In this document: positions 28,218 through 31,243 of the stretch, piece by piece
Layout: the number at the start of each line of letters is the position of its first letter
How positions within the stretch are numbered: position 1 is the first letter of the stretch
Assembly: GCF_027923555.1 (NCBI RefSeq)
Contig: NZ_AP025523.1
Location: forward strand, 558,001-622,000
Origin: Vulcanimicrobium alpinum
Lineage (GTDB): Bacteria > Vulcanimicrobiota > Vulcanimicrobiia > Vulcanimicrobiales > Vulcanimicrobiaceae
Direction: 5' to 3'
DNA: 64,000 bases
The notes under the pieces: model-generated
Databases searched by the model: none
What the model was told of the DNA's origin: nothing
What the model saw: the letters and a program-made list of their open reading frames with translations, nothing else
Made by a program: the position numbers and the translations under genes

Positions 28218-29759
28218 ATGACCGTCGCGCCTCCGGCTGCGCCGCTGCTGCGCATGACCGGGATCGCGAAAGCGTTTCCCGGCGTCAAGGCGCTCGACGG
28301 CGTCACCTTCGACGTGAACGCCGGCGAAGTGCATGCGCTCGTCGGTGAGAACGGCGCCGGCAAGTCGACGCTGATGAAGATCCTCGCCGGCGCGCAGCCG
28401 GCCGACGCGGGCGAGATCGTGATCGACGGCACCGTCGTCGCGATCGACGGGCCGAAGGCCGCCGAACGTTTGGGGATCGGGATGATCTATCAGGAGTTCA
28501 ACCTGGTCCCCGACTTCGGCGTAGTCGAGAACATCGTGCTCGGCAACGAACCACGCCGCGGCGTGCTGCTCGATCGCGCGGCGGCGCACGAGCAGGCGAC
28601 GCGCGTCCTCGCCGACTTGGGGATCGCATTGCCGCTCGACGTCCCGGCGCGCCGGCTCACCGTCGCGCAGCAGCAGCTCACCGAGATCGCGAAGGCGCTC
28701 GCGCGCCACGCGCGCCTCATCGTCATGGACGAACCGACCGCGGCGCTCACCGAACGCGAGATCGACGCGCTCTTCGGGCTGATCGGCAAGCTCAAAGCGC
28801 AGGGCGTTGCATTCGTCTACATCTCGCACCGCCTCGAAGAACTGCCGCGGATCGCCGACCGCATCACCGTCCTGCGCGACGGCAAAGCGATCGAGACGCG
28901 GCCGATCGCGCAGATGCCGCAGGACGAGATGATCCGTCTGATGGTCGGCCGCTCGCTCGAGGCGCACTTCCCCGAGGTGCCGCCGGTCGCGCCCGATGCG
29001 CGCGTCGTGCTCGACGTGAAGGGACTCTCCGCACACGGCAGCGTTCCCGTGCACGACGTGACGTTCTCCGTGCGCGCGGGCGAGGTCGTCGGACTCGCCG
29101 GGCTCGTCGGCGCCGGGCGCACCGACATCGTGCGCGCGATCGCCGGCGCCGACATCCCCACCAGCGGCGAGATCGCGGTCGAAGGGAAGCGCGTGATCGT
29201 GCGCTCGCCGCACGACGCGATCGCCGCCGGGATCGCGCTGATCACCGAAGACCGCAAGGCACAGGGCCTGGTGCTCGGGATGAGCGTGCGCGAGAACACG
29301 ACGCTCGCGAGCCTCAAGCGCTTCGTCCGCGGCGCGTTCGTCGACCGCTCCGTCGAAACGGCGACGACGAACGAGGAGATCGCCGAGCTGCGCATCCGCA
29401 CGCCGTCGAGCGAACAGATCGTGCGCAACCTCTCCGGCGGGAACCAGCAGAAGGTCGTGCTCGCGAAGTGGCTGGTCGACCGCGCGCACGTGTTCCTCTT
29501 CGACGAGCCGACGCGCGGGATCGACGTCGGCGCCAAGGCGGAGATCTACGCGTTGATGGTGGAGCTGCTGCAGCGTGGTGCAGCGATCGTGATGGTGTCG
29601 AGCGAACTTCCCGAAGTGCTCGGCATGTCGCATCGCGTCCTCGTCGTGCGCGGCGGCCGGATCCAGGCCGAACTCGCGCGCGGCGAAGCGACCTCGGAAA
29701 ACGTGATCGCCGCCGCGGCGGCCGTGAAGGCGGCCCCGGCGAAGGCTGCGCCGGAATGA
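28218..29759 (+). CDS. Sugar ABC transporter ATP-binding protein (RbsA-like, two nucleotide-binding domains)
   Basis: 513 residues with two ABC domains in tandem. Domain 1: VGENGAGKSTLMKIL (Walker A), LTVAQQQLTEIAKAL (signature region) and LIVMDEPTAALT (Walker B). Domain 2 begins at about residue 265, has a degenerate GLVGAGRTDIVRAI Walker A, the signature NLSGGNQQKVVLAKWL, and FLFDEPTRGIDVG. This is the arrangement of RbsA/MglA/XylG proteins. It powers import with the permease encoded next; stop and start overlap (ATGA). Confidence 0.93.
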   Translation: MTVAPPAAPLLRMTGIAKAFPGVKALDGVTFDVNAGEVHALVGENGAGKSTLMKILAGAQPADAGEIVIDGTVVAIDGPKAAERLGIGMIYQEFNLVPDFGVVENIVLGNEPRRGVLLDRAAAHEQATRVLADLGIALPLDVPARRLTVAQQQLTEIAKALARHARLIVMDEPTAALTEREIDALFGLIGKLKAQGVAFVYISHRLEELPRIADRITVLRDGKAIETRPIAQMPQDEMIRLMVGRSLEAHFPEVPPVAPDARVVLDVKGLSAHGSVPVHDVTFSVRAGEVVGLAGLVGAGRTDIVRAIAGADIPTSGEIAVEGKRVIVRSPHDAIAAGIALITEDRKAQGLVLGMSVRENTTLASLKRFVRGAFVDRSVETATTNEEIAELRIRTPSSEQIVRNLSGGNQQKVVLAKWLVDRAHVFLFDEPTRGIDVGAKAEIYALMVELLQRGAAIVMVSSELPEVLGMSHRVLVVRGGRIQAELARGEATSENVIAAAAAVKAAPAKAAPE

Positions 29760-30790
29760 CCGACGTCAAGGCGGTGATGGACGCGCGCGCCGGCGACGCC
29801 GTCGCGAAGAAACGCCGCGAAGCGACCCTGCGCAACGGCGGCCTCGCGATCGGGTTCGTCGTGCTGGTCTTCGCGGTCAACGCGCTCACGCACGGCGCGT
29901 TCCTCACGGCGGGCAACCTCACCAACGTTCTGCGCCAGATCACCGTCAACGCGATTATGGCCGTCGGGCAGACGTTCGTGATCATCACCGCCGGGATCGA
30001 TCTCTCGGTCGGCTCGATCGTCGGCCTGGGCGGTGTCGTCGCCGCGCTGACGGCGAACGCGCTGCATCTCCCCGCGCCGCTCGCGTTCGTCGTGACCCTG
30101 CTCGCCGCGCTCGCGGTGGGGAGCGCGGCCGGCTGGATCAACGCGCTGCCGGTGGTGAAGCTCGGCCTGCCGCCCTTCATCACGACGCTCGCGATGATGC
30201 AGGTCGCACGCGGCCTCGCGTACATCCTCGCCCACGGCCAGCCGATCCCGCTCAACGACAGCGATCCGTTCACGTGGCTGGGGACGGGGACATTTTTCAG
30301 CGTGCCCGGCTTCACGGGGATCCCGTACCAAGTCGTCGTGATGCTGATCGTCGTGTTCGCGTTCGCGCTCTTGCTGGGCCGCACGGTCTTCGGGCGCTAC
30401 GTGCTGGCGCTGGGCGGCAACGAGGAAGCGGCGCGGCTCGCCGGCGTCAACACGTCGCGGATGAAGACGCTGGTCTACGTGATCTCGGGCGGACTCTCCG
30501 CGCTCGCCGGGCTCGTGCTCATGTCGCGCTTCGCGTCGGGCGGTCCGCAGACCGGGACCGGTTACGAACTGCAGGCGATCGCGGCGGTCGTCGTCGGCGG
30601 CACCTCGCTGATGGGCGGGCGCGGGACGATCGTCGGAACGTTCTTCGGCGCGCTGCTGATCGGCGTGCTCAACAACGTGATGAACCTGCTCAACATCGAG
30701 TCGTACACGCAGATGATCGTGCTCGGCATCGTCATCCTGCTCGCGCTGGTCCTCGACGCGCTGCGCAAGCGCTGGGTCGCATCGCACTGA
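29756..30790 (+). CDS. Sugar ABC transporter permease (RbsC-like)
   Basis: 344 residues with eight to ten membrane segments of the BPD_transp_2 family. Recognisable blocks are NAIMAVGQTFVIITAGIDLS, VGSIVGLGGVV, LPPFITTLAMM, GGNEEAARLAGVN, the EAA-like loop of ribose permeases, and AVVVGGTSLMGGRGTIVGT. It forms the channel for the two preceding gene products. The ATG overlaps the ATPase stop. Confidence 0.92.
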   Translation: MTDVKAVMDARAGDAVAKKRREATLRNGGLAIGFVVLVFAVNALTHGAFLTAGNLTNVLRQITVNAIMAVGQTFVIITAGIDLSVGSIVGLGGVVAALTANALHLPAPLAFVVTLLAALAVGSAAGWINALPVVKLGLPPFITTLAMMQVARGLAYILAHGQPIPLNDSDPFTWLGTGTFFSVPGFTGIPYQVVVMLIVVFAFALLLGRTVFGRYVLALGGNEEAARLAGVNTSRMKTLVYVISGGLSALAGLVLMSRFASGGPQTGTGYELQAIAAVVVGGTSLMGGRGTIVGTFFGALLIGVLNNVMNLLNIESYTQMIVLGIVILLALVLDALRKRWVASH

Positions 30791-30805
30791 CGAAGGGAGC
30801 CCGTC

Positions 30806-31243
30806 ATCGAACCGCTCGATCTCACCACACAGCCGCCGCGGCCGCCGCGCGCGGTGCTCTGCGGCGTGTACTTTCTGCCGCGCACGATCGACAAGCTGCG
30901 CGCCGAACTGCCGGGCGGCGTGATGGGGCCGTATCTCAACCACGACACCGGTTTCAGCGCTTGGGTCGTGCGCAAGCTCGGCCTCGACATGAACGAGTTC
31001 CGCGACGCGGTCGCCCGCGCGGCGACCGAGGACGACGTCGTCGCGTGGCTCGCCCAGCGAATTCCGGCCGGCGCCGGCGAGAGCATCAACGCGAAGTTCG
31101 AGACGTTCCTCGCTTCGCGGATGTCGCCCGCAGACCAGCAGCTCGTGCGCGAGCGGCATCCGGTGATGGCCGAACGCCCCGATCTCGACCGCATCCTCGA
31201 CATCCTCGAAGCCGAAGACGCACGAGCCTTCGCGTCCCGCTGA
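30806..31243 (+). CDS. DUF5069 protein with no ATG/GTG/TTG at the conserved N-terminus
   Basis: About 145 residues. EPLDLTTQPPRPPRAVLCGV, then FLPRTIDKLRAELPGG and LNHDTGFSAWVVRKLG match DUF5069, whose members start almost exactly with the EPLDLT segment. The only standard start in frame is a GTG at 30854, which would cut off this conserved block. An ATC at 30806 sits six bases after a GGGAG ribosome site, right before GAACCGCTCGAT, so I give it as the probable start. The frame is closed by TGA at 30788. Last gene of the sugar transporter operon; function unknown. Confidence 0.7.
   Translation: MEPLDLTTQPPRPPRAVLCGVYFLPRTIDKLRAELPGGVMGPYLNHDTGFSAWVVRKLGLDMNEFRDAVARAATEDDVVAWLAQRIPAGAGESINAKFETFLASRMSPADQQLVRERHPVMAERPDLDRILDILEAEDARAFASR

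What the first reader, a model, noticed from the sequence alone, without database searches (positions are those of the whole stretch)
30795..30860. DUF5069 gene that seems to start at ATC
The family-conserved N-terminus begins at GAACCGCTCGATCTC, directly after an ATC placed six bases from a GGGAG ribosome site. There is no ATG, GTG or TTG between the in-frame TGA at 30788 and the GTG at 30854, which is too late. AUU/AUC starts are known but rare (infC, pcnB use AUU) and often make expression depend on IF3.
Basis: partly seen in the sequence, partly recalled or inferred. Interest (0 to 1): 0.55.

Follow-up and report, generated by a model that had tools for sequence, protein, structure and literature searches.

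The report
Bacterial gene starting at AUC codon
A small bacterial gene of unknown function most likely starts at the rare codon AUC where its relatives use a normal start codon, which should keep its protein scarce; it is a modest new example of a known exception.

Summary
The DUF5069 frame (30806-31243) has no ATG, GTG or TTG before GTG 30854, in any + frame. ATC 30806 falls on its homologs' start column: of 108 distinct places, 96 have ATG/GTG/TTG there; only the window (ATC) and one other (CTG) lack every in-frame canonical start. Three intact same-genus copies beside the same permease have ATG. An 8-bp Shine-Dalgarno (SD) pairing, second strongest of 58 homologs, precedes the ATC; 46 of 49 family-invariant residues are kept.

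The genome fits the isolate Vulcanimicrobium alpinum (hybrid assembly), so a base error is unlikely. In all 30 infC genes examined, this genome's included, AUA, AUC or AUU stands at the expected start; 10 have no canonical alternative, none of those 10 with AUC.

Best reading: a lineage-specific loss of AUG left a weak, SD-supported AUC start. IF3 control and selection for AUC are possible but unshown. At this locus the gene is broken in two of seven other same-genus genomes and displaced or not seen in two more, so early decay is a real rival. New member of a known kind.

The parts
28218..29759 (+). sugar-type ABC transporter ATPase gene, first gene of the presumed operon
   Evidence: ABC_tran, E 4.3e-52; best NCBIfam matches are monosaccharide ABC ATPases, all of those shown below their cut-offs
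29756..30790 (+). sugar-type (RbsC-like) ABC permease gene; its ATG overlaps the ATPase stop; ends at TGA 30788-30790
   Evidence: BPD_transp_2, E 1.3e-48; start read from the sequence
30792..30799 (+). Shine-Dalgarno GAAGGGAG, up to eight contiguous pairs (one G-U) with the 16S 3' end
   Evidence: -11.8 kcal/mol, rank 2 of 58 homologous starts; 16S end
30806..30808 (+). proposed start codon ATC
   Evidence: aligned with ATG/GTG/TTG in 96 of 108 homologous places
30806..31243 (+). DUF5069 gene, 145 codons plus stop when read from ATC
   Evidence: PF16798, 60.2 bits, profile positions 2-133 of 133
30854..30856 (+). first canonical in-frame start (GTG), which would remove 16 residues
   Evidence: one search lists the 129-aa ORF from here; Pfam score falls to 52.1 bits

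Best explanation
The DUF5069 gene begins at AUC (30806-30808). Its ancestor most simply had AUG here, as the intact syntenic genes of its genus still do. A lineage-specific change (ATG to ATC is the simplest path) left an AUC, which pairs with initiator tRNA at two of three positions. A strong Shine-Dalgarno six bases upstream places the ribosome there, and the permease stop codon only 15 bases upstream may supply ribosomes by coupling. Initiation is therefore weak, the protein scarce, and the yield probably sensitive to IF3. Shown: the sequence, the homologous position, the predicted SD strength, the complete and conserved frame, and AUH codons at the infC start in this lineage. Inferred: actual initiation at AUC, coupling, low yield, IF3 sensitivity.
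For: No canonical start in any + frame before 30854. Aligned codon canonical in 96 of 108 places; only the window and L033 (CTG) have no in-frame canonical start. Syntenic intact copies in G001, G008 and G010 begin with ATG. SD pairing rank 2 of 58 and 46 of 49 invariant columns kept. Pfam score higher from ATC than from GTG. Solved homolog 3omd_A, 145 residues, aligns residue 5 to query residue 3. ATA/ATC/ATT at the infC start in 30 of 30 loci, 10 of them without a canonical alternative.
Against: ATC was seen in no other DUF5069 homolog examined, so nothing shows selection for it. Strong SDs also occur on ATG relatives, so the SD need not compensate. None of the 10 infC loci without a canonical alternative has ATC; the four infC loci with ATC all have a canonical start upstream. 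The window protein has the longest end branch among its close homologs, 0.55. Broken copies in two same-genus genomes. No expression data.
Confidence: 0.62

Rival explanations
1. The gene is silenced or on its way out: AUG was lost by drift because the protein is no longer needed, and any AUC initiation is residual.
For: Among the seven other same-genus genomes with the permease, G007 has only fragments and G004 has ATG but a broken frame with the middle of the protein missing; no copy was seen within about 1.5 kb downstream in G006. ATC is species-specific among the homologs examined; window end branch longest of its close homologs.
Against: The frame is complete and keeps 46 of 49 invariant columns, like its relatives; the SD is intact and strong. 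G004, G006 and G007 are draft assemblies of 410, 400 and 110 contigs, so breaks there may be assembly errors.
Confidence: 0.2
2. Translation starts at GTG 30854 and the protein is 16 residues shorter.
For: It is the first canonical start and the one a mechanical ORF list gives.
Against: It removes the conserved PLDL...PPR segment present in homologs, lowers the Pfam score from 60.2 to 52.1 bits, and the C/G-rich stretch just before it shows no SD-like purine run (sequence).
Confidence: 0.08
3. Sequencing or assembly error, or a mutation of the sequenced culture only; the species has ATG.
For: A single base separates ATC from ATG; raw reads were not available.
Against: The genome fits V. alpinum WC8-2, assembled from NovaSeq and PacBio reads (PMC9758169, passages), where a lone substitution error is unlikely.
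Confidence: 0.07
4. The permease stop TGA is read through and DUF5069 is made as a C-terminal part of the permease.
For: Both genes share a frame here and the stop is TGA followed by C; that UGAC is a leaky context is recalled.
Against: The shared frame is not conserved: from the permease stop the DUF5069 start lies at offset 18 here but 38 in G004 and G008, 13 in G001 and 28 in G010, none a multiple of three (G010 counted back from query residue 3). An SD between the genes argues for separate initiation.
Confidence: 0.03

Closest known systems
infC and pcnB of E. coli (AUU starts)
   Same: AUH codon in place of AUG, expected to be discriminated by IF3; AUU for both is stated in PMC4245954 (passages), pcnB as translationally limited by a reference title in PMC13009471.
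   Different: AUC instead of AUU; here the rare codon is not conserved among orthologs examined, and limitation or IF3 control is not shown.
infC (AUA), ccpN (AUA) and cvfC1 (AUU) of Staphylococcus aureus, with extended SD motifs (PMC13009471, passages)
   Same: A weak AUH codon preceded by a long SD pairing; reporter yield there was about 10% of AUG, up to 30% for ccpN in rich medium.
   Different: Those starts were mapped experimentally and are described there as conserved; this one is predicted and species-specific so far.
rpoS ATG>ATA of an E. coli O104:H4 laboratory derivative (PMC12864459, passages)
   Same: A single-base loss of AUG that leaves an AUH start and still yields protein (up to 5-fold less).
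   Different: That change arose during laboratory cultivation; here it is fixed at least in the sequenced isolate.
DUF5069 family (PF16798; solved member 3omd_A)
   Same: Family membership and N-terminal extent.
   Different: Start codon only.

Membership tests
DUF5069 (PF16798) | Pfam score above the curated cut-off of 27 bits | tested here: met
   60.2 bits, profile positions 2-133 of 133
Bacterial gene with a non-canonical AUH start codon | No canonical in-frame start consistent with the conserved N-terminus | tested here: met
   Only GTG 30854, inside the conserved region
Bacterial gene with a non-canonical AUH start codon | The AUH codon occupies the start position of orthologs | tested here: met
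   96 of 108 homologous places have ATG/GTG/TTG there
Bacterial gene with a non-canonical AUH start codon | SD at functional spacing | tested here: met
   GAAGGGAG ends six bases before ATC; -11.8 kcal/mol
Bacterial gene with a non-canonical AUH start codon | Demonstrated initiation at that codon | not testable with these tools
   Needs N-terminal peptides or ribosome profiling
IF3-controlled gene of the infC/pcnB kind | Rare codon conserved in orthologs | tested here: not met
   No other ATC among 108 distinct places
IF3-controlled gene of the infC/pcnB kind | Expression changes with IF3 level | not testable with these tools
   Needs an experiment

The most novel reading that the evidence does not exclude
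The AUC with its 8-bp SD is a selected attenuator: in this species a DUF5069 protein of a sugar-transport operon has come under IF3 control beside infC (AUA), giving a small regulon set by start codons in Vulcanimicrobiota.
Probability: 0.13. Interest if true: 0.5.

Novelty: new member of a known kind. Interest (0 to 1): 0.32.

Why it matters
Natural AUC starts with good comparative support appear to be few, and gene finders that allow only ATG/GTG/TTG would cut this protein short by 16 residues. The locus offers a test pair, AUC here and AUG in intact syntenic relatives, for how far a strong SD can carry a weak codon outside the usual model organisms. The side result, AUA/AUC/AUU at the infC start in 30 of 30 loci examined, suggests that start-codon self-control of IF3 extends to this lineage.

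Tried and rejected
Start upstream in the permease frame: rejected, TGA 30788 closes the frame and nothing canonical follows before 30854. Start in another frame followed by a shift: rejected between 30780 and 30854, as no canonical triplet lies there in any + frame. A structured control element: the fold of 30770-30860 is no stronger than shuffles (z +0.97; 167 of 200 shuffles fold at least as well). Conservation of ATC as a signal: looked for, not found. Tree of 55 of 65 homologs: the window row falls in a group of 27 (support 97/98) that includes the syntenic same-genus genes, but branching inside it is open, so neither vertical descent nor replacement by a copy from another genus is settled; the 60-70% identity to copies of other genera against 47-54% to the syntenic same-genus ones stays unexplained. 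The genome-collection scan gave one locus, L036, 65% identical, the same sequence at its start as L068, with ATG. The searches made gave no second genome of this species; the genome collections hold one genome per species. Papers: the search for DUF5069 found none in the library; searches for AUC or ATC starts are. Hecht et al. 2017 is not held, so its values come only through citing papers. An AUC start of infC (dsg) in Myxococcus xanthus is recalled; my search for it found nothing.

One search shows the G004 frame broken, and searches place an apparent G005 ortholog (L018, ATG, 139 residues) about 3.6 kb downstream of its permease on the same strand. I lowered the best explanation from 0.66 to 0.62 and the novel case from 0.15 to 0.13 for this.

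Full report
Observation. The sequence is as described. The upstream sugar-type permease ends at TGA 30788-30790; then come GGGAG (30795-30799), six bases, ATC (30806-30808), and the DUF5069 frame to 31243. No ATG, GTG or TTG lies in any + frame between 30780 and GTG 30854, and ATC is the only AUH or CTG codon in frame there. The frame scores 60.2 bits against PF16798 read from ATC and 52.1 bits from GTG 30854. A solved homolog, 3omd_A of 145 residues, aligns its residue 5 to query residue 3, so the long form has a usual N-terminus.

Source. The window lies in a single contig of 3,508,363 bases, with window GC 0.684. This fits Vulcanimicrobium alpinum WC8-2 (spelled alpinus in the paper; 3.50 Mbp, 68.4% GC, AP025523), assembled from NovaSeq and PacBio reads (PMC9758169, passages). 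The identification is inferred from size, GC and completeness, not from a named record.

Comparison. DUF5069 homologs came from searches of the relatives, genus and family, one genome-collection scan, the permease search and 40 further stretches. These are the best-scoring matches, not every match listed. After removal of identical sequences 108 distinct places remained; none was dropped for edge or alignment reasons. At the codon aligned with ATC, 79 have ATG, 12 GTG, 5 TTG and 12 something else. Of the 12, nine have another canonical start near by in frame; one (L124, genome G007) is a remnant whose only canonical start is 327 bases upstream; two have none: the window (ATC) and L033 (CTG directly after a TGA; genome G054, 72% complete). 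A missing canonical start is thus rare, and the ATC sits where the start belongs. The four other DUF5069 copies of this genome have canonical starts available (L001-L004).

Synteny. Of 11 genomes of the genus, this one included, 8 gave the permease; G002, G003 and G009 gave no match at the threshold used. Directly downstream, DUF5069 is complete with ATG in G001, G008 and G010, complete with ATC in the window, broken in G004 (ATG present, middle of the protein missing and frame changed), and reduced to fragments in G007. It was not seen within the roughly 1.5 kb downstream in G005 and G006. In G005 an apparent ortholog with ATG lies about 3.6 kb downstream on the same strand (places). The ancestral codon is most simply ATG, and the gene is not kept everywhere in the genus. 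Draft assemblies may explain part of the damage.

Frame relation. The permease and DUF5069 share a frame in the window, but in G001, G004, G008 and G010 the offsets from the permease stop are not multiples of three. This argues against a readthrough fusion as a conserved design.

Ribosome site. The 16S gene of this genome ends in CACCTCCTTTCT (the exact mature end is inferred). GAAGGGAG (30792-30799) can form eight contiguous pairs with it, -11.8 kcal/mol: rank 2 of 58 homologous starts (median -4.35), reached by 0.28% of 5000 random 17-mers. Several ATG relatives have equally strong sites, so the SD is not shown to have evolved because of the ATC. The local fold is unremarkable.

Is the gene alive? 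In an alignment of the window protein and its 15 homologs of at least 60% identity, 46 columns are the same in all 16; the window alone departs at 3 more, and the other 15 at 0 to 4 each. This gives no sign of decay. Against that, its end branch, 0.55, is the longest among these homologs in the tree. A working gene fits, and so does one whose decline is very recent.

AUH starts in this lineage. I examined 30 infC loci of 38 matched genomes among 41 searched. At the aligned codon 20 have ATA, 4 ATC and 4 ATT; the other two have ATA or ATT one codon earlier. Ten of the 30 have no canonical in-frame alternative; these have ATA (6) or ATT (4), none ATC. The four ATC loci (L088-L090 and L107) all have a canonical start further upstream, as does this genome's own infC (ATG 87 bases upstream of its ATA). 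In three same-genus genomes (L095, L101, L103) stops rule such an upstream start out. So AUH initiation on infC in this group is well supported, and AUC as one of the codons used is plausible rather than proven. The predicted SD pairing of the own infC is moderate, -6.7 kcal/mol.

Mechanism. The best-supported account is weak initiation at AUC, supported by the strong SD and perhaps by ribosomes finishing the permease. Measured yields of such codons elsewhere vary: 0.1-0.3% of AUG in E. coli and 5-20% in two clostridia for AUU, AUA, CUG and AUC together, in one leader (PMC9680021, passages), and about 10% for AUA/AUU starts with extended SDs in S. aureus (PMC13009471, passages). In a reconstituted system IF3 disfavoured weak third-base pairs, for example AUC with two ill-matched anticodons (PMC10158994, passages); the AUC/CAU pair itself was not in the passages I saw. 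Low expression and IF3 sensitivity here are inference.

Verdict. The kind is known (infC, pcnB, ccpN), and the conservation that would mark a selected control is missing. Interest is low to moderate; the AUH start of infC across this lineage is arguably the sturdier result.

Noticed in passing
L065 (G000:C1, infC near 3080027) and L088-L116: infC appears to start at AUA, AUC or AUU in 30 of 30 loci examined in this lineage; 10 have no canonical in-frame alternative. Annotation would often pick a false upstream start.
   Followed up: partly
L033 (G054:C64:7491-7916): A DUF5069 copy with CTG directly after a TGA and no canonical in-frame start; weak SD pairing, -4.1 kcal/mol.
   Followed up: partly
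L124 (G007) and L118 (G004), downstream of the permease: Broken DUF5069 copies at the same place in two same-genus genomes: fragments in G007, a missing middle and changed frame in G004.
   Followed up: partly
window 30806-31243 compared with L012, L013, L123 and with L007, L067: The window protein is 60-70% identical to copies of other genera, of which the permease was not found beside L007-L011, but only 47-50% to the intact syntenic same-genus copies; the tree does not settle whether it was replaced.
   Followed up: partly
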